Shown: positions 13,319-64,000 of the stretch, piece by piece
How positions within the stretch are numbered: the stretch's first letter is position 1
Layout of the letters: each line of letters opens with the position of its first letter
Source: an uncultured Pelagibacteraceae bacterium
GTDB taxonomy: Bacteria > Pseudomonadota > Alphaproteobacteria > Pelagibacterales > Pelagibacteraceae
Length of the DNA: 64,000 bases
Direction: 5' to 3'
Assembly: GCA_902631595.1 (NCBI GenBank)
Contig: CACOZH010000001.1
Location: 44,206 to 108,205, forward strand
Made by a program: the position numbers and the translations under genes
The notes under the pieces: model-generated
Database searches by the model: none
What the model saw: the letters and a program-made list of their open reading frames with translations, nothing else
Told to the model about the DNA's origin: nothing

Positions 13319-14143
13319 TTATTTTTTTTTACCTTTCAGATCAAGTTTAATATCAGAAAGATCTACCAATTTTTTTCTATAGTTATTTCTAACAAAACCT
13401 TTGCTTGTAATGTCTTTTACTAATTTTAGGAACTGATTTTGTTCATCATTATTTTGCTCGGTTTCATCCGTTGTTTCTTTTTGTGCAATTGAAGGTGTAT
13501 GTGCTAGATCTTCCCTGCTTAGGTAAGATATAGCTAGTTCTCTGAATATATAGTCTAGAATTGAAGAGGCACTTAAAATTCTGTCATTACCTTGAACTTT
13601 TCCTGATGGCTCAAATTTTGTTCCAATAAATGCACTAACAAATTCATCTAATGGAACTCCATATTGTAGACCTAAAGATACAGCTATTGCAAAGTTATTC
13701 ATTAATGCTTTTACTAATTCTCCCTCTTTTGATGTGTCTATAAATATTTCACCTATTTTCCCGTCTTCGTACTCACCCGTGTGAAGGTAAACTTTATGAT
13801 CACCAATTGTTGCTTTTTGGATATAGCCTTTTCTCCTATCTGGCATGCTAAATCTTTTTGTAATGTTTTCTTTAAATGATTTATTCAAAACAACGTTATT
13901 TGCTAAATTATTATTACTTGGTGTTGTCAATTTTTGCTGTGATTCGTTAAACTTAACATCAATGTTGCTTGAGCTTTTTTCAAGATTTTTTGTGTTTCTT
14001 TTATCGAATTTTACATCTATTACTTCAAATTCCCCGTCATCTCTGTTGTCAAGTTGGTCTAATTGATTATTACTTATGTCGTCTAAGAAATGCTTTACCT
14101 TAAACGAGCAGGTATAAAAAGTTTCTACGATATATTTTGCCAT
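13319..14143 (-). CDS. Stand-alone TSCPD-like protein resembling the C-terminus of class II (B12-dependent) ribonucleotide reductase
   Basis: [38 protein letters not shown]...[33 protein letters not shown]...[14 protein letters not shown]; no catalytic RNR domain adjacent. Confidence 0.7.
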
Positions 14144-14238
14144 AAATTAAAATTATTTTTGAGTTTAATAATTTAATGTATATACATAATTTGAATTTAG
14201 TCTAATTTTTTTTTTACAATTAGAAATTGAAAATAATT

Positions 14239-51563: not shown

Positions 51564-52358
51564 CTAAGTTCTTGCTACTCTATCCATCTCTTTTAATTCA
51601 ACTTCAAGTTTATCTAATTCTTCTCCTCCAGCCATCATGCTTAAAAGTTTTTCCCTTGAAATATCCTTTTTTTGAAATGTACCCATACTTCTTCCTCTAT
51701 TCAAAACTGTAAAACTATTTCCAACAGGATATGCATGGTGTACGTTATGTGTAATCAATATAACAGCTAATCCTTCCGCTGCAGCTTTTACAATATATTT
51801 TAAAACCATAGAAGCTTGATGAACTCCCAAAGCAGAAGTTGGTTCATCTAAAACTAAAACTTTAGCACCAAAATAAATTGCCCTAGATATAGCCAAACAT
51901 TGTCTTTCACCTCCAGACATTGTTCCAACTGCTTGAGATGGATCTCTTACATCAATCCCAATTTGTCCCATTCTTTCTGCTGCAATTTTATTTGCTTTTT
52001 CTACATCAAAAGTTTTTAAAAATGGAATTCCTTTTTGTGGTTCTCTTCCCATGAAAAAATTTCTTGTTACACTCATTAATGAAACCAAAGCTAGATCCTG
52101 GTAAACTGTTCCTATTCCTATATCTAAAGCATCTCTTGGAGAGTCAAAAATAATCTTTTTATCCTCAAAAATAATTTCTCCTTCATCAGGTTTATGTACA
52201 CCAGCAAGTGTTTTAATTAAGGTTGATTTTCCAGCACCATTATCACCAAGAAGGCACATTATTTCACCTTTTCTTAACCTCATAGTTACATTTTTGAGCG
52301 CAATTACTTTCCCAAAAAATTTACTAATATTATTAAATTGCACTAAATAATCCGACAC
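51564..52358 (-). CDS. Sugar-type ABC transporter ATP-binding protein
   Basis: [27 protein letters not shown]...[17 protein letters not shown]...[13 protein letters not shown]. Confidence 0.94.
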
Positions 52359-53485
52359 TATTTGTTCTCCGTTACTTTTCTTCTGATATAATTATTAAAT
52401 ACAACTGCAATTAACATCATTGCTCCAAGAAATACTTTAAACCAATCTGTATCAACGTCTGTGTAGAATATTCCCATTGAGACTGTTCCAAAAATAATTG
52501 CCCCTAAAGCAGCTCCAATTGCAGATCCATATCCACCAGTTAGCAAACAACCACCTACAACAGCAGCAGCAATTGCTTCTAACTCTTTCAAAGTTCCTCG
52601 CATAGTATCTGCAGAACCAGCATCCAAAACTTGAATACACGCAAATATTGTTGAGGCTACTGCAGTACCAATAAATAAACTAATTTTCACTCTACCAACA
52701 GGTACACCTACATTTGTTGCGCCTACCTTGTCACCACCTGATGCAAATATCCAGTTTCCATATCTTGTTTTCATTAATATCCATGTTGCAAATAAAGTCA
52801 GGGCAATAAACCATATAACTGAAGGTGGAATTCCTGTTGCAAGTGGTGTTCCGTCAGTTCTTAATGCAATTAATTTCATTTTACCCAACCAATTAAATAG
52901 CCATTGAAATGTATCAGTAGCAAATATCCATGCTATCGGATCATCTTCAATTAAAACTCTTAATCCTGGAACTTGTGTTCTTCCAGTTATTAATCGAGTA
53001 ATTGCTAACGTTGCTCCTCTTAAAATAAATAGCATCGCTAGTGTAACAATAAATGAAGGCAACCCAGTTCTTACAACCATTATTCCATTAAAGTATCCAA
53101 TTAAAACTGCCATAGCGAAAGCAAAAGTAATACTCATCCATAAAGGCCATCCCCAATAAATAGCAGGTATCGCTATACAGATCCCTGCAAAACCAATCAT
53201 TGATCCGATTGACAAATCAAACTCACCACCGATCATGAGCATTGCAGCAGCAATTGCAATTATTCCTAAATTTGCTGAAACATCTAAAAAGTTTAAAGCC
53301 CCATATGCACTAAACATTCCTGTATCACCTGCGACAATACCAAAAAATATAAAAACTAAAATTGATCCTCCTAAAGCTCCAAGTTCAGGTCTGTTTAATA
53401 GCACTCTTAATGGTGAAATTTTTTTTAATCTTTCATCTTGTCCAGTTTGTTTTTTGGATTGAATACTTTGAGATTTTACAGACAT
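52358..53485 (-). CDS. Sugar-type (RbsC/XylH-like) ABC transporter permease
   Basis: [17 protein letters not shown]...[44 protein letters not shown]. Confidence 0.93.
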
Positions 53486-53559: not shown

Positions 53560-54483
53560 TTATCTATAACCTTGAGCTGCCCACTTTATTACAGCGCTAG
53601 CATTTTTAGGAGTTACAAATCCAGGTCCAGTCATTACTACACCAGCTGGCATTGTTCCCCATCTCATATACTGAGCAAAAATTGCAATTGGTAGGTAACC
53701 TTGTAGGTATTGTTGTTGGTCGATTAAAAACTCTACTTTTCCTGCAGCAGCAGCTTTTAACATATTAGGTGACATATCAAATGTACCTAATTTTACATTA
53801 CCAACTTTTCCAGCAGCTTCTAAAGCTTTTAATGCTGCTTCGCCAGATAAACCAGCGCCTAAAGTTAGGATAGTGTCATATCCGCCACCTAATTTAGCAG
53901 CAACAGCTTTTTGAATTTCTGTTGGGTCATTAGAAGTACCTAAAATATCAACACTTCCACCAAAGCCTTTTTTGAAACCTGCACATCTTCTGTCTAGTGC
54001 AACGTTTCCAACTTCGTGGTTAACGCATAATGCTTTTTTACCACCAGCAGCTTTCATTTTTTGTCCACCACCTACACCAGCTTCAAACTCAGTTTGCCCA
54101 ACATGAGCACTTATTCCTAATGAAGCGTAGTCATCAGAACCAGAGTTCATAGAAATTACTGGAATTCCAGCAGCTATAGCAGCTTTTACAGATTTACCTA
54201 AAGCAGCAGCATCTGGAAGAGTAATCACAATACCTTTTGGTTTTTGTGATACAGCATTGTCAATTAATTTCGCCATTTCAACCATGTCAAATGTTCCTGG
54301 CGCAGTGTACTTACAAGATACTCCCATATCTTTACAAGCAGCATCAACACCATTTTTTGCAACTGACCAGAAAGGGTCATTTGCTTGACCGTGTGAAACA
54401 ACTATTACATCCGTAGCTAAAGCAGACACAGACATCATAGCCCATGAAGCGATTGCTAGGAAAAAGTTTCTTATTATTTTCAT
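53560..54483 (-). CDS. Sugar-type periplasmic substrate-binding protein
   Basis: Signal peptide; VIVVSHGQANDPFWSVAKNGVDAACKDMG...KGIVITLPDAAALGKSVKAAIAAGIPVISMNSGSD. Confidence 0.94.
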   Translation of the reverse strand: MKIIRNFFLAIASWAMMSVSALATDVIVVSHGQANDPFWSVAKNGVDAACKDMGVSCKYTAPGTFDMVEMAKLIDNAVSQKPKGIVITLPDAAALGKSVKAAIAAGIPVISMNSGSDDYASLGISAHVGQTEFEAGVGGGQKMKAAGGKKALCVNHEVGNVALDRRCAGFKKGFGGSVDILGTSNDPTEIQKAVAAKLGGGYDTILTLGAGLSGEAALKALEAAGKVGNVKLGTFDMSPNMLKAAAAGKVEFLIDQQQYLQGYLPIAIFAQYMRWGTMPAGVVMTGPGFVTPKNASAVIKWAAQGYR

Positions 54484-54590: not shown

Positions 54591-55592
54591 TTAAAAATTA
54601 AGTATCTCAATCTTTTTTGATGTTATAGATTTTTTTGCTGCGTTAGCCATAATTAAAGCTCTTCTTCCTTCCTCAAATAATGCAAGTGGTTTGATATTTT
54701 TTTTTATAAATTTTGCAAAACCATAAAGTTGATTTTTGTAAGCATCTTTATAACGTTCAACAAAGAAATTCATTAAAGGAGATTTGCTCGAAGTTGTATT
54801 ATTTGAATAAAAACTTATCTCGTCATTTCTTTTATTTTCAGAAATAATCATTCCTTTTGAACCAAACAACTCAACTCTTTGATCATACCCAAAACTACAA
54901 TGTCTAGAATTTGTAATTATACATTGAACACCTTTTTTTGATTTTATTAAACAGGAAGCTAGTTCAAAATCTTTTATTTTATTAAATCTATTATCTGAAA
55001 TATTACTACCAGTGGCTATAAGTTTTTCAGGTTCATCACTTCCCAGATAGAATCTTGCCAAATCAAAATCGTGGATCATCATATCTTTAAATATTCCTCC
55101 AGACTCTTTTAGATATTTAATTGAGGGTGGGGCAGGATCTCGACTAGTTATTATAACTTTTTCAAGTTTTCCAATTTTTCCCATTAGAAGTTTCTTTTTT
55201 AAATTGTTGTGACCTGGGTCGTATCTCCTATTAAAGCCTAGTTGAATTTTTGGATTAAATCTTCTAATTTTCTTTTTACAATTGTTGATTTTATTTATGT
55301 CTAAATCCAGTGGCTTTTCACAAAAAATTGCTTTTTTATATTTAGCTGCTTCAAGTATAAGTTTTATATGTGTTGAAGTTGTAGAAGCAATGAATATAGC
55401 ATGAATATTTTTATCCTTAAATACAACTGAGGGATTATAAATTGGAATTGATCTTAATTCCTTTGAAATTTTTTGAGTCAGTTTTTTATTTATATCGTAT
55501 ACATATTTTAAGTTAAAATCTCGATTTCTCATTAGATTTTTGCCGTGCATCACACCAATTCTACCAAGACCTAATAAAGCAATGTTAATCAT
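54591..55592 (-). CDS. Gfo/Idh/MocA oxidoreductase, candidate inositol 2-dehydrogenase
   Basis: INIALLGLGRIGVMHGKNL...AIFCEKPLDLD...GGIFKDMMIHDFDLARFYLG; next to iolE. Confidence 0.82.
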   Translation of the reverse strand: MINIALLGLGRIGVMHGKNLMRNRDFNLKYVYDINKKLTQKISKELRSIPIYNPSVVFKDKNIHAIFIASTTSTHIKLILEAAKYKKAIFCEKPLDLDINKINNCKKKIRRFNPKIQLGFNRRYDPGHNNLKKKLLMGKIGKLEKVIITSRDPAPPSIKYLKESGGIFKDMMIHDFDLARFYLGSDEPEKLIATGSNISDNRFNKIKDFELASCLIKSKKGVQCIITNSRHCSFGYDQRVELFGSKGMIISENKRNDEISFYSNNTTSSKSPLMNFFVERYKDAYKNQLYGFAKFIKKNIKPLALFEEGRRALIMANAAKKSITSKKIEILNF

Positions 55593-55645
55593 TTTTTTAT
55601 TTGAAATTAAAATTCTTTTTAATATCTTAACTAAAATTAATTATT

Positions 55646-56548
55646 ATGTCAGTAAAATTAGGAGTAGCTCCTATAGCCTGGAGTAACGATGATATGCCTG
55701 AGTTAGGAGGCGAAACTACTTTGGAGCAATGTTTAGAGGAAGCTAGTCATGCAGGTTATATTGGTATTGAGTCGGGTGGAAAATTTCCAAAAGATTCTCT
55801 AGAATTAATACCCAAACTAGAGAAATACAATTTAAGTTTATGCTCTGGTTGGTATGGAGCAAATCTTAGAAAAAATTCAGTAAACGAAGAAAAACAATAT
55901 TTACAACAACAATTAAAACTTTTTCAAGATTGTAAATCTCCTTGTATTGTTTTTGCTGAAGTTTCTGGTTCCATTCAAGGTGATCCTAATAGAAAACTTT
56001 CTACAAGACCTCAGATGAATAAAGAAGAATGGAAAAATTTTTGTGAAAAAATTTCTGAAATTGGAAGGTATTTAGAGGACCAAGGTATGCCGCTAGCCTA
56101 TCATCATCATATGGGAACAGTAATTGAAACTCAAGAGGATACTGAAAGATTAATGGAAGATACACATGATAGTGTAAAGTTAACTTTAGATACAGGTCAT
56201 ATGCTATTTGCTAAAGGAGATTCAAAAAAAATATTCGAAAATTATAATAGCAGAATTAAACATGTTCATTGTAAAGATATAAGAAAAAATGTCCTTGAGA
56301 AATCTATAAAAGAGGATTTAAGTTTTAGAGAGGCTTTTCTAGAAGGAGCTTTTACAGTTCCTGGTGACGGGTGTATAGATTATAAACCGCTGTTTGATAT
56401 TTTAAAAAAAAATAATTATTCTGGATGGTTAGTAGTTGAAGCTGAACAAGATCCTCAGAAAGCAAATCCATTAGAATACGCAATAAAGGGTTATAAATAT
56501 TTAACTGAAACTTTGAAAAAATCTAATATTGAAATTGATACTAACTAA
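55646..56548 (+). CDS. iolE: Myo-inosose-2 dehydratase (IolE-like)
   Basis: KLGVAPIAWSNDDMPELGGETTLEQCLEEASHAGYIGIE...YHHHMGTVIETQEDTERLM...LDTGHMLFAKGD. Confidence 0.9.
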   Translation: MSVKLGVAPIAWSNDDMPELGGETTLEQCLEEASHAGYIGIESGGKFPKDSLELIPKLEKYNLSLCSGWYGANLRKNSVNEEKQYLQQQLKLFQDCKSPCIVFAEVSGSIQGDPNRKLSTRPQMNKEEWKNFCEKISEIGRYLEDQGMPLAYHHHMGTVIETQEDTERLMEDTHDSVKLTLDTGHMLFAKGDSKKIFENYNSRIKHVHCKDIRKNVLEKSIKEDLSFREAFLEGAFTVPGDGCIDYKPLFDILKKNNYSGWLVVEAEQDPQKANPLEYAIKGYKYLTETLKKSNIEIDTN

Positions 56549-57049
56549 TTATCTATATATTGATGTTAACTCGTTATTTCCAGCTGCAACACATGGGGAT
56601 TTAAAACAAGTTCCAACTATCCATTCCGAACCTGGTTCTGCTTGAAAATTTGAAGACATTAAAAATATAACACCCATCTCAACTGTTTGACCCGCTTTAC
56701 CTTCAGCTTTTATTCTTGGATCTGGATCAGTTTTAACTTTCGTATCATCAGAAAATGGATTTTTTATTTGAAGATTATTGTTTATATAGTTCACTACCTT
56801 ATCTGCTATCCACTCTCCATTACAAGGATCACCCCAGACAGTTTTTAAATTCTCATCTGCATTGCCACATTTATTTACTTCATTATTTATGAAATCTACT
56901 ACTTTATTATGATTTTCTTTAACAAGATTTGCTTTGGCTTCAACTTCTGGCCTTGTGCTTGCAGTCCAAATTAACATACCGATAACATACGTTAATGATA
57001 GTATTACCAATGTTTCCAATAGACCAAAATTTTTTAAATTAATTCTCAT
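56549..57049 (-). CDS. Hypothetical protein with single N-terminal transmembrane helix
   Basis: Intact 166 aa ORF; GLLETLVILSLTYVIGMLIW hydrophobic helix, four Cys in the remainder; overlaps the next gene by one base. Confidence 0.7.
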   Translation of the reverse strand: MRINLKNFGLLETLVILSLTYVIGMLIWTASTRPEVEAKANLVKENHNKVVDFINNEVNKCGNADENLKTVWGDPCNGEWIADKVVNYINNNLQIKNPFSDDTKVKTDPDPRIKAEGKAGQTVEMGVIFLMSSNFQAEPGSEWIVGTCFKSPCVAAGNNELTSIYR

Positions 57050-58014
57050 TAAAGTTTTACAATTTTTGATTTGTCTAATTTTTTTTCAAAAAAATCAATA
57101 ATATTTTGAATAGTTTCTTTGCCCATTCTGATCATACATTCCTCTGTAAAAGCAGCCGTATGAGGACTCAAAAAGACTTTTTGATTTTTTAGTAAAGGGT
57201 TACTTTGATCTGGTGGTTCCTTTTCAAATACATCTAAACCAGCTCCAAATATTAAATTTTCATTTAAAGCTCTATCTAAGTCAAATTCGTTTATCACACC
57301 TCCTCTAGCAGCATTTATTATAATACAGTTTTTTTTCATATTTTTAAGTAAATCGTAATTTATTAAATTTTTTGTCTTATCATTTAATGGAACATGTAAT
57401 GAAATAGCATCTATTTTTTCTATTGAATCTTCTAAATTTTCGACTTTTTTTCCTCCAAAACTCTCAATAACTTCTTTAGATACAAATGGATCATAAACAA
57501 AAACATTCATTTCAAATCCATGGCATCTTTTAATTAGACATTGTCCTATTCTTCCAAAACCTGCAATTAAAATATTTTTCTTCCATAATTCAATAGTTTT
57601 AGGAAGTTTATTACGATCTAAAAAATTTCCAGATTTTACAGCGTCATCATACATACTTTTTCGTTTTGAAATATTTAAAAGCATAAATAACACATGTTCA
57701 GCAACAGCTACAGCGTTGGCAGTTGCTGTTATTGTTAAAGTAATATTTTTTTTCTTAGAGGATTTTAAATCAATATTATCATAACCCACACCATGCCTTG
57801 AAATAATTTTTAAATTTTCCGTTTTGTTTATAAAATCTTCTGATAGTTTAGCTGTCCTTATCGAAATAGCATCACATTGTGCTATTTTTGATTGTAGCTC
57901 TTTTGAATTTGTATCTTCGAAAATCTCAAATTCATAATTTGATTTTTTCTTTAATAAATCAATTCCAGCTTGGTGAATTGGTTGAATAACTAAAACTTTG
58001 ATTTTCTTTGTCAC
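57049..58014 (-). CDS. D-2-hydroxyacid dehydrogenase (SerA/PGDH-like)
   Basis: SRHGVGYDNIDL...NILIAGFGRIGQCLIKR...INAARGGVINEFDLDRALNEN. Confidence 0.9.
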   Translation of the reverse strand: MTKKIKVLVIQPIHQAGIDLLKKKSNYEFEIFEDTNSKELQSKIAQCDAISIRTAKLSEDFINKTENLKIISRHGVGYDNIDLKSSKKKNITLTITATANAVAVAEHVLFMLLNISKRKSMYDDAVKSGNFLDRNKLPKTIELWKKNILIAGFGRIGQCLIKRCHGFEMNVFVYDPFVSKEVIESFGGKKVENLEDSIEKIDAISLHVPLNDKTKNLINYDLLKNMKKNCIIINAARGGVINEFDLDRALNENLIFGAGLDVFEKEPPDQSNPLLKNQKVFLSPHTAAFTEECMIRMGKETIQNIIDFFEKKLDKSKIVKL

Positions 58015-58017
58015 TTT

Positions 58018-58809
58018 TTAATAAGTTTTAGATTCCTCTTTATTTGAGGAGCCTTTAATTTTCTCAACTATATTTTTTGCACCAGCTCCTATTGATCTTT
58101 GATCAGAACCAACTGTTACAAAGTTAAAACCTTTTTCAATCATTTTGTTTGCATATTCTGGAGTTCCATTGTGAATTCCAGCAAAAATATTATTTTTCTT
58201 TGCATGCTCTAATATTCTTAAGATTTCTGAATATGCTTTAGAATTTTCAGGTTTATCAAATCCTGGTTGTTCTCCGATTGATAAACTTAAGTCTGCAGGA
58301 CCTATATAAATTCCATCAAGTCCTTTAACTGACATAATCTCATCTAATTTCTCAAGCGACTCTTTTGTTTCTATCATCGCAAGTTTTAACATTTCATTAT
58401 CAGCATGTTTTGCGTAATCAGATCCACCATAAATCAAACCTCTTACTGGCCCGAAGCTTCTATAACCATTTGGTGGATACATGCATGCTTGAACAAAATT
58501 TTCTGCATCTTTTTTATTGCTAACCATAGGACAAATAACTCCATAACTTCCGGCATCTAAAATTTTCATTATTTGACCTGGCTCGTTCCAATTCACCCTT
58601 GCTAACGGAGTGACATCAGTTGATGAAATAGTCTGTAGCATTGGTAAAGCATTTGAATAGTCAACTAAACCATGTTGCATATCTATAGTTAAAGAGTCCC
58701 ATCCTTGATGAGCCATAGCTTCTGTGGAAACTGTACTTGGTATTTGAAGCCAACCGTTTACTACAGGCTTACCTTCTTTCATCATTTTTTTTATTTTATT
58801 AATTCTCAT
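58018..58809 (-). CDS. HpcH/HpaI aldolase family protein
   Basis: GWLQIPSTVSTEAMAHQGWDSLTIDMQHGLVDY...GVICPMVSNKKDAENFV...GLDGIYIGPADLSLSIG. Confidence 0.9.
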   Translation of the reverse strand: MRINKIKKMMKEGKPVVNGWLQIPSTVSTEAMAHQGWDSLTIDMQHGLVDYSNALPMLQTISSTDVTPLARVNWNEPGQIMKILDAGSYGVICPMVSNKKDAENFVQACMYPPNGYRSFGPVRGLIYGGSDYAKHADNEMLKLAMIETKESLEKLDEIMSVKGLDGIYIGPADLSLSIGEQPGFDKPENSKAYSEILRILEHAKKNNIFAGIHNGTPEYANKMIEKGFNFVTVGSDQRSIGAGAKNIVEKIKGSSNKEESKTY

Positions 58810-58810
58810 T

Positions 58811-60253
58811 TTATGACTTAAGACCTAAGTGTGTGTATTTGATATTAAGATAATCTTTAATTGCCATTGATCCACCTTCACGACCATAACCTGTTTGTTT
58901 AATGCCTCCAAAAGGAGCCTCAGCAACTGCAACCGCAGCTGTATTTACAGCAACTGTTCCACTTTCCATTAATTCAGAAGCTCTATTAGCTTGTTCCATA
59001 GAATTTGTATAAATATAACTACAAAGACCAAGATCGTTATCATTTGCTCTTTCAATAATTTCATCAAAAGTCTTAAAAGAAAGCATTGGTACCAATGGTC
59101 CAAATGGTTCTTGTTTCATAATTGTGAAATTATCTTTAACATCATCAAAAATTGTTGGTTCATAAAAATAACCTTTATTAAAACCCGAAGGTCTTTTACC
59201 ACCAAGTAAAACCTTAGCTCCTTCTTTTTTTGTGATTTCAACAAGTTCCTCAATTTCTCCTAACCTTTTAGAAGTAGTTAATGGTCCTAACTGTACATCT
59301 TTATCTAGACCATTCCCAATTTTTAATTTTTTTGTTCTTTCAATAAACGCTTTGATAAATTCATCTTTTTTCTTTTCTTGAATATAAAATCTATTGGGAG
59401 AAATACAAACTTGTCCATTATTTCTAAATTTTGCAGTGATAGCCATATCAGCAACTTTATTGATATCCACATCATCAAAAACTATAAATGGTGAATGACC
59501 ACTTAGTTCCATTGTAACTCTTTGAACTTTATCTGCTGCTTTTTTTAAAATTAATTTTCCAACTCTAGTTGATCCAGTGATTGAAACCTTTTTTACAATA
59601 TCAGACTCTAATAATTCATTTGATATTTCAGCAGGATCTCCAGACAAAAGATTTACAACACCGGGTGGTACACCTGCTTCTTTACAAATATCCACTAATT
59701 CCATAACAGTACCAGGTGTAATTACATCAGGTTTACAAATAACTGAGCAGCCAGCGGCTAAAGCTGTAGAAATTTTCCTTGCAGCTAAGACTAATGGAAA
59801 ATTCCATGGTACTAATGCAGCAACTACTCCTACTGGTTGGTAATAAATATGTACTCTAGTGTCGGGAAATCTACTTTCAACAGTTTGTCCATAAATTCTT
59901 TTTGTTTCTTCTGCGTTCCATTCAAATATATCCGCAGCTCCACCTGTCTCACCAATTCCTTCTGCCAATGGCTTTCCCACTTCAAGAGTTAACCACTTTG
60001 CTAAAACATCTTGTTTTTGCCTCATCAAATCTGCAATTTTTCTGATAATATATGATCTTTTCCAAGGAACAGTGTTTCTCCAAACTTCTAATCCTTTCTT
60101 TGCAGATTTTAATGCTTTCTGAACATCCACTGAAGATGCTTTCGAGGCTTTTCCTATTACTTCTTCAGTAGCAGGATTTATTACATCATAAGTTTCTTTT
60201 TTCTCTGCTTGTTGCCATTTACCATCAATGAATTGTCCAAATTTACTATACAT
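58811..60253 (-). CDS. NAD(P)-dependent aldehyde dehydrogenase
   Basis: QFIDGKWQQAEKKETYDVINPATEEVIGKA...VTMELSGHSPFIVF...NNGQVCISPNRFYIQ; start MYSKFGQ at 60253 rather than 60364. Confidence 0.93.
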   Translation of the reverse strand: MYSKFGQFIDGKWQQAEKKETYDVINPATEEVIGKASKASSVDVQKALKSAKKGLEVWRNTVPWKRSYIIRKIADLMRQKQDVLAKWLTLEVGKPLAEGIGETGGAADIFEWNAEETKRIYGQTVESRFPDTRVHIYYQPVGVVAALVPWNFPLVLAARKISTALAAGCSVICKPDVITPGTVMELVDICKEAGVPPGVVNLLSGDPAEISNELLESDIVKKVSITGSTRVGKLILKKAADKVQRVTMELSGHSPFIVFDDVDINKVADMAITAKFRNNGQVCISPNRFYIQEKKKDEFIKAFIERTKKLKIGNGLDKDVQLGPLTTSKRLGEIEELVEITKKEGAKVLLGGKRPSGFNKGYFYEPTIFDDVKDNFTIMKQEPFGPLVPMLSFKTFDEIIERANDNDLGLCSYIYTNSMEQANRASELMESGTVAVNTAAVAVAEAPFGGIKQTGYGREGGSMAIKDYLNIKYTHLGLKS

Positions 60254-60307
60254 AATTTTTATTTTATGGTTTATTAAGTGAAATATTAAGGGAATATATC
60301 TACAAAT

Positions 60308-62152
60308 ATGAAAAAAATAAAGCTTACTTGTGCTCATGCAATTGTAAAACATATAATTGCACAAAAAATTCTAGTGGATGGTAAAAAAGAACCATTATTT
60401 GCTGGTGCTTTTGGAATTTTCGGTCATGGAAATGTAGCTTGTTTAGGTCAAGCATTGGAGGAAAACAAAGAAAGCCTTCCAACATATAGAGGTCATCACG
60501 AACAAAACATGGCCTTAACAGGCATAGCATACGCTAGAGCAAAAAGAAGAAAACAGATTTTTGTAGCAACAAGTTCGGTTGGACCCGGTTCAACAAATAT
60601 GGTTACAGCTGCTGCAGTTGCAATGAGCAACAGGTTACCAATTCTATTCTTACCAGGTGATACATATGCAAATAGAATTCCTGATCCTGTTCTTCAACAA
60701 GTCGAACACTTTAATAATCCAAGTATAACTCAGAATGATGCTTTTAAGCCTGTAACAAGATATTTTGACAGAATAACAAGGCCAGAACAAATTTTACAAA
60801 CATTACCACAAGCAATTCAAGTAATGTTGGATCCGGCAGATTGCGGTCCAGCATGCATCTCTTTAAGTCAAGATATTCAAGGTGAAATTTTTGATTATCC
60901 AGAAGAGTTTTTTAAAGAAAGGATTCATAACATAAGAAGACCTCGTCCTGATGATTTTCAAATCAAAGAAGCAGCAGAAACAATAAAAAAATCTAAAAAT
61001 CCAATCATAATTTCTGGTGGAGGAGTTTTTTACTCTGATGCAATGGAAGATTTATCAAATTTTGCAATAAAACATAATATACCTGTAACTCAAACTGTAA
61101 TGGGATACTCTACAATGAAAAGAGACCACTCGCATTTTTTAGGCCCAATAGGTGGATTAGGAGGAAAGGCAGCAAATAATTTTGCTAAAAAAACTGATCT
61201 TGCTATTGCAGTAGGAACTAAACTAGGAGATTTTACAACAGGCTCTTGGGCAAATTTTGAAAATCCAAATTTTTCTTTAGTATCATTGAATGTTTCAAGA
61301 TTTGATGCAAATAAACATATGGCACAATCTGTGATAGGAGATGCTAAAGTAACTTTAAATGAATTATCCCAAGCATTAGGAAATTGGAAAGCACCAGAGG
61401 AATGGTATAAAAAATCAAGAGAGGAGTTAAAATCTTGGAACGAATATGTTGATAAAGAGAGTGGACCAACAAATCAGAAGTTGCCAAGTTACGCTCATGC
61501 CGTTGGAGCAGTTTATAGAAATTCAGACCCATCAGATATAGCTGTAACTGCTGCCGGGGGCTTGGTTGGTGAGGTGGTTCAAATTTGGAGACCGAGAGAA
61601 CTAAATACCCATGAAACTGAATGGGGCTTCAGTTGCATGAGTTATGAAATTTCTGGAGCTCTTGGTATTAAAATGGCAAATCCAGATAAGGAAGTAATCG
61701 CGTTTGTGGGAGATGGATCTTATTTATTATATAACTCAGACATATATTCATCTGTAATTACAAACAACAAATTAATAATTATAGTATGTGATAATGGAGG
61801 TCATGCAGTAATAAATAGACTTCAACTTTTTAAAGGAGGAAAAGAGTTTAATTGTCTATTTGAGAGTTCAAACATTTCAAACCAAGTTAATGTAAATTTT
61901 GCAAAACATGCAGAAAGCATGGGTGCAAAATCAGAAGAAGTAAATACAATAAGTGAATTAGAAGATGCATTTAAAAGAGCAAAAAAATCTAAAACTACTT
62001 ATGTAATTTCAATTAAAACACATTCATATCAATGGTTAGAAGGCTCAGCTTATTGGGAAAGTCCTACACTTGAAATACCCACAACTAAAGAAAATGAGGA
62101 AGCTTTAAAACTTCATAAAGAAGGTAAATCTAAACAAAGACAAGGTGTTTAA
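60308..62152 (+). CDS. iolD: 3D-(3,5/4)-trihydroxycyclohexane-1,2-dione hydrolase
   Basis: GIFGHGNVACLGQALEEN...YRGHHEQNMALTGIAYARAKRRKQIFVATSSVGPGSTNMVTAAAVA...QVEHFNNPSITQNDAFKPVTRYFDRI. Confidence 0.94.
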   Translation: MKKIKLTCAHAIVKHIIAQKILVDGKKEPLFAGAFGIFGHGNVACLGQALEENKESLPTYRGHHEQNMALTGIAYARAKRRKQIFVATSSVGPGSTNMVTAAAVAMSNRLPILFLPGDTYANRIPDPVLQQVEHFNNPSITQNDAFKPVTRYFDRITRPEQILQTLPQAIQVMLDPADCGPACISLSQDIQGEIFDYPEEFFKERIHNIRRPRPDDFQIKEAAETIKKSKNPIIISGGGVFYSDAMEDLSNFAIKHNIPVTQTVMGYSTMKRDHSHFLGPIGGLGGKAANNFAKKTDLAIAVGTKLGDFTTGSWANFENPNFSLVSLNVSRFDANKHMAQSVIGDAKVTLNELSQALGNWKAPEEWYKKSREELKSWNEYVDKESGPTNQKLPSYAHAVGAVYRNSDPSDIAVTAAGGLVGEVVQIWRPRELNTHETEWGFSCMSYEISGALGIKMANPDKEVIAFVGDGSYLLYNSDIYSSVITNNKLIIIVCDNGGHAVINRLQLFKGGKEFNCLFESSNISNQVNVNFAKHAESMGAKSEEVNTISELEDAFKRAKKSKTTYVISIKTHSYQWLEGSAYWESPTLEIPTTKENEEALKLHKEGKSKQRQGV

Positions 62153-62159
62153 ATAATTA

Positions 62160-63317
62160 ATGAATAAAGTCTTCAAAGTAGGCCTTATCGGTTGTGGACA
62201 TATTGCAGAAACATACTTTAGAGCTCATAAATATTTTAATAATTTTAAAATAATAAAATGTGCAGACATAAATAATCATGCATCAAATAAATGCGCAAAA
62301 ACATATGGTATTAAGGCTTTATCAGTAAATGATTTATTAAAGGACAACGAGGTTGAAATTATTTTAAATTTAACAATTCCAAAAGCACATTACATAATAG
62401 CAAAAAAATCTCTTTTAAATAATAAGCATGTATATTCTGAAAAGCCTATGGCTATTAATACTAAAGATGGATTAGAATTATTCAAATTAGCTAAAAGAAA
62501 AAAACTTTATATAGGTAACGCGCCAGATACATTTTTAGGTGGAGGGAATCAAAAAGCAAAAGAGTTAGTTGAAAGAAAAATTATTGGTAAAATAAATTTA
62601 GGTAATGCTATTTTCGCATTTCCAGGCGTTCAATCTTATCATCCAAACCCAGAACCTTGGTTTTCAAAAAAAGAAGGAGGTCCAGTAATCGATATGGGAC
62701 CGTACTATTTAACTGCACTGGTTAATTTACTTGGTCCAGCCAAGGAAGTTAGTGGTAGTCTTATGAGAGGTATAAAAAAAAGAATAATAGGTATTGGGCC
62801 AAGAAAAGGAAAAAAATTTAATGTAGAATGTCCAACTACATATTTATCAACGATAGTATTTAAAAGTAATACTATCATTAGACTAACATTATCTTTTGAT
62901 GTGATTGCACATAATCGTAATCATATAGAATTATATGGAAATAAGGGAAGCCTGATAGTTCCTGATCCAAATATGTTCGGAGGATCTGCATTTACTTGCA
63001 AAAGTATTGGGGATAAATGGAAAGAGCACAAAACAAATAAAATGCCACTTGGCAAAATAAATATAAGAACGCAAAGCGCAAGAGCAAATGAATCCCCTAC
63101 AAATGCAAATTATAGGGGAGTAGGATTAGCAGAAATGGCATACTGTATTGAAAATAAAAAATTAAATAGATGTAATGGAGAATTATCTTATCATGTATTG
63201 GATATTATACAGTCGATAATGAAAGCTGCAAAAACAAATAAAAAACAGAAAATTAAATCAACATGCAGTAAACCAAAATATTTTTCACAAAAGGAAATAA
63301 ACAAAATATTAAGATAA
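62160..63317 (+). CDS. Gfo/Idh/MocA-family oxidoreductase
   Basis: FKVGLIGCGHIAETYFRAHKYF...KHVYSEKPMAIN...KEGGPVIDMGPYYLTALVNLLGP. Confidence 0.9.
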   Translation: MNKVFKVGLIGCGHIAETYFRAHKYFNNFKIIKCADINNHASNKCAKTYGIKALSVNDLLKDNEVEIILNLTIPKAHYIIAKKSLLNNKHVYSEKPMAINTKDGLELFKLAKRKKLYIGNAPDTFLGGGNQKAKELVERKIIGKINLGNAIFAFPGVQSYHPNPEPWFSKKEGGPVIDMGPYYLTALVNLLGPAKEVSGSLMRGIKKRIIGIGPRKGKKFNVECPTTYLSTIVFKSNTIIRLTLSFDVIAHNRNHIELYGNKGSLIVPDPNMFGGSAFTCKSIGDKWKEHKTNKMPLGKINIRTQSARANESPTNANYRGVGLAEMAYCIENKKLNRCNGELSYHVLDIIQSIMKAAKTNKKQKIKSTCSKPKYFSQKEINKILR

Positions 63318-63320
63318 ATT

Positions 63321-64000
63321 ATGCAAATTGGTATTGATGTAGGTGCAACAAAGATTGAATCGATTTTGCTACACGATAATGGAGAAGAAACCGGAAGATC
63401 TAGAATTGACTGTCCAACTGACTACAGTTCAGTAATAAAAAGTATAAAAGAAATTATTGAAAAAATTGAAAAAAATACTGGAAAGGAATTACCCGTCGGT
63501 GTTTGTCATCCAGGTATTCATTCTATTCATACAGGTTTAATAAAGAATTCTCCAAATTGTGACTGGATAAATAATAAACCGTTCCAAAAAGATTTAAGAG
63601 TAGCTACTGGAAGAGAAATTTTTTGTGAAAATGATGCCAATTGTTTTACTTTATCTGAGGCAATGGACGGCTCAGGAAAACATTATAAAATTGTATTTGG
63701 AATAATATTAGGATCTGGTGTTGGTGGAGGCTTAGTAATTGATAAAAAAATTGTTACAGGCTCTCATGGTATAACAGGGGAGTGGGGACATAATCAAATT
63801 CCTTTAATTGGAAAAGAGTCAAAAATTAAAAAAACTAATTTAAGAGAAGGAGAAATTGAAAGTGCAATATCAGGATTAAGTCTATCAAAAAAATTTAAGA
63901 AAGAATTTAAAAAAGATTATAAGGCTAGTAAGATTTTTGAATTATATAGAAAACATGATTTGGACGCTGAAAAAATAGTTGAGGAATTTAAAGATAATCT
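63321..64000 (+). CDS. ROK-family sugar kinase, partial (runs off the window end), zinc motif degenerate
   Basis: Own translation: MQIGIDVGATKIESILLHDNGEE...CENDANCFTLSEA...GIILGSGVGGGLVIDKKIVTGSHGITGEWGHNQIP...KIKKTNLREGEIESAISGLSL. Confidence 0.88.
   Translation, partial: MQIGIDVGATKIESILLHDNGEETGRSRIDCPTDYSSVIKSIKEIIEKIEKNTGKELPVGVCHPGIHSIHTGLIKNSPNCDWINNKPFQKDLRVATGREIFCENDANCFTLSEAMDGSGKHYKIVFGIILGSGVGGGLVIDKKIVTGSHGITGEWGHNQIPLIGKESKIKKTNLREGEIESAISGLSLSKKFKKEFKKDYKASKIFELYRKHDLDAEKIVEEFKDN

What the first reader, a model, noticed from the sequence alone, without database searches (positions are those of the whole stretch)
63321..64000. ROK kinase in the iol cluster has lost the CxCGxxGC zinc motif
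ROK hallmarks are present: DVGATKIE, ENDAN, GSGVGGG and ITGEWGHN (catalytic and ExGH-type motifs). The following zinc site, which in E. coli NagK reads RRCGCGQHGCIENYLSG, is KKTNLREGEIESAISG here. The flanking residues (basic pair, IE, SG) stay collinear while the zinc cysteines are gone. That suggests a zinc-independent variant, possibly with altered substrate, within an inositol gene neighbourhood. It may also fit pressure on metal use in ocean bacteria.
Basis: partly seen in the sequence, partly recalled or inferred. Interest (0 to 1): 0.6.

Follow-up and report, generated by a model that had tools for sequence, protein, structure and literature searches.

The report
Zinc-less sugar kinase of ocean SAR11
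A sugar-phosphorylating enzyme of the ocean bacterium SAR11 has lost the zinc site that most of its relatives carry; the loss happened once, long ago, in an ancestor of a large SAR11 clade, the gene is still under strong selection, and in SAR11 it is tied to inositol and sugar uptake genes, but the same kind of loss is already known in other kinases of this family.

Summary
The ROK gene at window 63321 is cut by the contig end, but complete orthologs (299-300 aa) lack the same cysteines. Of 263 ROK sequences aligned with E. coli Mak, 207 (all SAR11) lack all three zinc cysteines; 55, including the ROKs of 23 SAR11 genomes and every other alphaproteobacterial and E. coli ROK examined, keep all three. 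With the loop masked, a maximum-likelihood tree needs one loss (bootstrap 100). A nested subclade (57 sequences) also changed the ExGH sugar/zinc histidine to leucine. Catalytic Asp and both substrate glutamates are kept; dN/dS is 0.04-0.13, so it is a working gene. Zinc-independent ROKs are already known (NanK of Fusobacterium and Staphylococcus), so this is a new variant, not a new kind. Altered substrate and metal scarcity are not supported: zinc-keeping and zinc-less versions share the same association with inositol genes. New context: the ROK is an old part of the SAR11 inositol locus (IolG, IolE, IolD, rhizopine/inositol-type transporter), which lacks IolB and IolC in every genome tested. 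A role as the missing kinase is possible but unproven.

The parts
63321..64000 (+). ROK-family sugar kinase, cut by the contig end (226 of about 299 residues)
63633..63635 (+). Codon of catalytic Asp105 (ENDAN)
   Evidence: numbering; Asp in all 262 scorable sequences
63780..63791 (+). ExGH motif (EWGH, Glu154-His157), kept here; His is Leu in another SAR11 subclade
63792..63857 (+). Loop that replaces the zinc motif (NQIPLIGKESKIKKTNLREGEI), no cysteine
63858..63860 (+). Codon of Glu180, equivalent of the substrate-binding Glu/Asp after CxCGxxGC
62160..63317 (+). Gfo/Idh/MocA oxidoreductase, 3 bases upstream of the ROK start
60308..62152 (+). IolD (TIGR04377, 802 bits, cut-off 715)
55646..56548 (+). 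IolE (TIGR04379, 413 bits, cut-off 290)
54591..55592 (-). IolG (TIGR04380, 358 bits, cut-off 355)
53560..54483 (-). CUT2 sugar-binding protein, nearest NCBIfam model rhizopine (inosamine) SBP, 319 bits (cut-off 420)
52358..53485 (-). CUT2 ABC permease
51564..52358 (-). CUT2 ABC ATPase
58018..58809 (-). HpaI-family aldolase in the same locus
58811..60253 (-). Aldehyde dehydrogenase (SSADH-like) in the same locus
57049..58014 (-). D-2-hydroxyacid dehydrogenase in the same locus

Best explanation
It is a functional, zinc-independent ROK sugar kinase that descends from zinc-containing Mak-type (fructokinase-like) enzymes of Alphaproteobacteria. One ancestor of a large SAR11 clade replaced the structural zinc loop with a metal-free loop of similar length. 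ATP binding (DxGxT), the catalytic Asp, the Glu and (here) His of ExGH, and the Glu after the loop stay, so it should phosphorylate a hydroxyl of a hexose-like substrate by the ordinary Mg-ATP ROK mechanism, with the loop held by protein contacts instead of zinc. It serves sugar and inositol catabolism, next to ABC sugar importers. Shown: motif loss, single origin, selection, gene context. Inferred: kinase activity, absence of bound zinc, substrate class.
For: ROK profile, sequence and fold matches. 207 SAR11 sequences without the cysteines against 55 with all three. One change on the loop-masked careful tree, in 100% of 200 bootstrap trees. DxG, catalytic Asp and ExGH Glu invariant in the zinc-less set, Glu after the loop in 200 of 207. 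dN/dS 0.04-0.13. Replacement loop mostly 22-24 residues against 24 in most zinc-keeping sequences. ROK 2-3 bases behind an SDR or Gfo/Idh gene in nearly all of 80 loci, and followed by sugar-ABC binding-protein genes in 62 of them. Known zinc-free NanK enzymes are active (PMC10017367).
Against: No biochemical data. Mak scores of the zinc-less proteins (237-273 bits) are far below the Mak cut-off of 443. The AlphaFold model is poor exactly at residues 132-182, the loop region, so nothing is known about how the loop is held. 57 relatives lack the substrate-binding His, which could mean a changed or weakened activity there.
Confidence: 0.8

Rival explanations
1. The ROK is the missing kinase of an inositol pathway without IolB and IolC: it phosphorylates 5-dehydro-2-deoxygluconate (or another product of IolD) in place of the PfkB-type IolC.
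For: ROK and IolD co-occur in 397 SAR11 genomes (149 both, 23 and 10 single, 215 neither). In deep SAR11 genera the ROK follows the IolG/CUT2-transporter genes directly and sits beside IolD and its Gfo/Idh partner. No IolB in 27 genomes, no IolC above cut-off in 27, no KduI/IolB fold family in 19, while MmsA/IolA is present.
Against: Two complete genomes (G026, G078) have the ROK without IolD, and in 56 of 80 loci the next gene is a glucose-type CUT1 binding protein. IolB is missing too, so the substrate of IolC may never form. PfkB kinases below the IolC cut-off are in all 26 genomes tested. Co-occurrence is not corrected for descent.
Confidence: 0.2
2. Plain fructokinase/glucokinase of broad use that happens to sit in a variable sugar-catabolism island; the inositol linkage reflects island co-inheritance only.
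For: Best profile is Mak fructokinase; glucose-type transporter next door in most loci of the window's genus; present in complete genomes without IolD.
Against: Deep genera keep it with the inositol/rhizopine-type transporter and iol genes, not with glucose transporters.
Confidence: 0.5
3. Zinc scarcity in the open ocean selected the loss.
For: SAR11 has strongly reduced its metal uptake repertoire (PMC4771312).
Against: One loss only; 23 SAR11 genomes keep CxCGxxGC; half of surveyed SAR11 genomes keep znuA (PMC4771312). The same loss occurs in host-associated Fusobacterium and Staphylococcus NanK (PMC10017367).
Confidence: 0.1
4. Decaying gene or sequencing artefact.
For: The contig ends inside the gene in this genome.
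Against: Full-length orthologs in many genomes and dN/dS of about 0.04-0.13.
Confidence: 0.01

Closest known systems
E. coli Mak fructokinase (ROK; NCBIfam NF007108)
   Same: Highest-scoring characterised profile; alphaproteobacterial homologs that group with Mak share all catalytic motifs
   Different: Mak keeps the zinc motif (CYCGKQGC); zinc-less SAR11 proteins score 237-273 bits against a cut-off of 443
Zinc-independent NanK of Fusobacterium nucleatum and Staphylococcus aureus
   Same: ROK kinases without the cysteine zinc site that remain structurally and catalytically intact (PMC5458393, PMC10017367)
   Different: Different subfamily (N-acetylmannosamine kinase; zinc-less SAR11 proteins score 81-102 against a NanK cut-off of 283), so the SAR11 loss is a separate event by inference; the SAR11 loci hold inositol or hexose genes
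Listeria Lmo2764 (PDB 4htl)
   Same: No cysteines in the loop and ExGH His replaced (Tyr; PMC5458393), like the SAR11 subclade with Leu
   Different: Distant sequence (18% in the fold comparison); function not established in the sources read
NagK (PDB 2ap1, 4db3, 7p7i)
   Same: Nearest solved structures by sequence and fold; substrate residues N104, D105, E154, H157 correspond
   Different: Has the structural zinc; His157 binds both zinc and sugar (PMC10031466)

Membership tests
ROK family (PF00480) | Pfam ROK profile above cut-off | tested here: met
   150 bits, cut-off 22.9
ROK family (PF00480) | DxGxT phosphate-binding motif | tested here: met
   DVGAT in window; D and G invariant in 207 zinc-less sequences
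ROK family (PF00480) | Catalytic Asp in ND motif | tested here: met
   invariant
ROK family (PF00480) | ExGH motif | tested here: met
   EWGH in window; EWSL in 57 relatives
ROK family (PF00480) | CxCGxxGCx(E/D) zinc motif (a signature, but absent in some accepted members) | tested here: not met
   none of the 207 zinc-less SAR11 sequences has it; accepted ROKs without it exist (PMC5458393)
Mak fructokinase (NF007108) | equivalog score of at least 443 bits | tested here: not met
   267 (nearest subclade), 273 and 237 bits
Mak fructokinase (NF007108) | phosphorylates fructose | not testable with these tools
   needs an enzyme assay
NagK (NF009835) | equivalog score of at least 380 bits | tested here: not met
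   207 bits
NanK (NF003461), seriously considered because zinc-free members exist | subfamily score of at least 283 bits | tested here: not met
   82 bits
IolC (TIGR04382) | PfkB-type IolC domain | tested here: not met
   the protein matches ROK, not IolC; no IolC above cut-off in 27 SAR11 genomes

The most novel reading that the evidence does not exclude
SAR11 degrades inositol by an iolB- and iolC-less pathway in which a ROK kinase, recruited from the fructokinase lineage, does the phosphorylation step of IolC.
Probability: 0.18. Interest if true: 0.6.

Novelty: new variant of a known kind. Interest (0 to 1): 0.4.

Why it matters
It gives a clean natural series for the role of the ROK structural zinc: zinc-keeping relatives, zinc-less enzymes that keep the shared His, and zinc-less enzymes that lost the His, in order on one tree, in one of the most abundant bacterial groups of the ocean. 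[quoted passage not shown]

Tried and rejected
Completing the gene in its own genome: impossible, the contig ends there. Plasmid collection search: only distant ROKs. Frameshift or pseudogene: rejected. AlphaFold on 35 close orthologs: mean pLDDT 71, below 50 over residues 132-182, so no structural claim on the loop; the fold search only confirmed the ROK fold. The first tree held long E. coli branches; rebuilt without the longest of them, same result. The dN/dS script stopped at an ambiguous base after 11 of 13 pairs. Literature: no held paper found on this SAR11 kinase or on SAR11 inositol catabolism; the two primary papers on zinc-free NanK (PMC7062169, PMC7726757) are not held, so I rely on a review for them.

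Full report
Observation. The ORF at 63321-63998 is a ROK kinase fragment of 226 aa, cut because the contig itself ends at the window end. It is the only ROK found in this 70% complete genome. The named motifs are present and the CxCGxxGC zinc motif is replaced by a cysteine-free stretch. Complete orthologs of 299-300 aa from Pelagibacteraceae show the same, so the window comes from SAR11 (Pelagibacterales).

How widespread. In 397 genomes of the same family 172 carry a related ROK. I read the gene from 150 of these genomes, 80 named contigs, 28 other alphaproteobacterial genomes and four E. coli references (the SAR11 genome and contig sets overlap). Aligned to E. coli Mak, 207 SAR11 sequences lack all three zinc cysteines; of these 150 keep the ExGH histidine and 57 have leucine there with serine before it (GEWSLN). 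All three cysteines are kept in 55 sequences: the ROKs of 23 SAR11 genomes, the E. coli Mak, NagK, NanK and AlsK, and all 28 other alphaproteobacterial ROKs examined. One short sequence could not be scored.

Single loss. With the trait columns masked, IQ-TREE places all zinc-less sequences on one side of one branch (bootstrap 100, SH-aLRT 100; 200 of 200 bootstrap trees). The histidine loss is one further change nested inside. The nearest zinc-keeping neighbours are the L130-type SAR11 ROKs and then other Alphaproteobacteria, so loss rather than gain is the natural direction (inference from the outgroup).

It is a working gene. In the zinc-less set DxG, the catalytic Asp and the ExGH Glu are invariant; the Glu after the loop is kept in 200 of 207. 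Nei-Gojobori dN/dS is 0.04-0.13 in 11 pairs. The loop keeps a similar length, mostly 22-24 residues, with one lineage shortened to 12. The roles of these residues (NagK: N104, D105, E154, H157 and D187 bind the sugar, H157 also the zinc) are from PMC10031466. In the window protein the His remains although its zinc partners are gone, which fits its sugar-binding role.

Context. In this window IolD, a Gfo/Idh oxidoreductase and the ROK follow each other with gaps of 7 and 3 bases, and IolG, IolE, an HpaI aldolase, an aldehyde dehydrogenase and a CUT2 ABC transporter are close by. The CUT2 binding protein is nearest to the rhizopine (inosamine) binding-protein model, 319 bits, below its cut-off of 420, and to PDB 4ru1 (from memory, that structure holds myo-inositol). 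In deep SAR11 genera the ROK lies directly behind the transporter ATPase of IolG-RbsB-RbsC-RbsA, and in most of them next to Gfo/Idh-IolD, so the link to the inositol locus is old. In the window's genus most loci instead read SDR, ROK, glucose-type CUT1 transporter (56 of 80).

Co-occurrence. IolD and ROK are both present in 149 of 397 genomes, both absent in 215, single in 23 and 10 (Fisher p about 3e-70, not corrected for shared descent or incompleteness). Zinc-keeping ROK genomes have IolD as often (19 of 23) as zinc-less ones (111 of 127), which speaks against a change of role caused by zinc loss. No genome tested has IolB (0 of 27; KduI/IolB family 0 of 19) or an IolC above cut-off (0 of 27), though the MmsA/IolA family is above cut-off in 17 of 19. 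The middle of the SAR11 inositol pathway is therefore unknown, and the ROK is the one kinase gene seen tied to the locus. It cannot be called the IolC replacement: two complete genomes have it without IolD, and the isomerase is missing too.

Comparison. Zinc-free ROK kinases are known: F. nucleatum NanK by structure (PMC5458393) and S. aureus NanK, with kinetics that did not track zinc (PMC10017367). The SAR11 enzyme belongs to a different branch, nearest Mak, by profile score below the equivalog cut-off, so this looks like an independent loss. Metal scarcity is not needed to explain it: SAR11 relatives keep the motif, and half of surveyed SAR11 genomes keep a znuA importer (PMC4771312).

Verdict. 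Observation confirmed, interpretation partly right; a new, phylogenetically clean variant of a known enzyme family, with an open question about its role in an unusual inositol locus.

Noticed in passing
SAR11 genera g2 and g4, e.g. L120:6158-7063, L114:6166-7065: 57 SAR11 ROKs have GEWSLN instead of GEWGHN: the ExGH His that binds both zinc and sugar is Leu, one further change nested in the zinc-less clade.
   Followed up: yes
window 54591-63317 and 27 SAR11 genomes: Inositol locus with IolG, IolE, IolD (and MmsA elsewhere) but no IolB and no IolC above cut-off in any genome tested.
   Followed up: partly
window 56549-57049 (-): 166-aa protein with an N-terminal hydrophobic stretch (pilin-like to the eye), no Pfam match, kept between IolE and the 2-hydroxyacid dehydrogenase in several SAR11 genera.
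   Followed up: no
L126 (G300), L124 (G304), L127 (G123): Genomes of the window's genus whose ROK groups with sequences of other SAR11 genera, which suggests transfer between SAR11 lineages.
   Followed up: no
G331:C15:1243-1920 and 13471-14148: Two equally scoring ROK copies in opposite orientation near the two ends of one 15-kb contig; may be an assembly fold-back.
   Followed up: no
window 58811-60364 (-): The aldehyde dehydrogenase ORF called from TTG overlaps the IolD start; the true start is probably the ATG at 60253.
   Followed up: no
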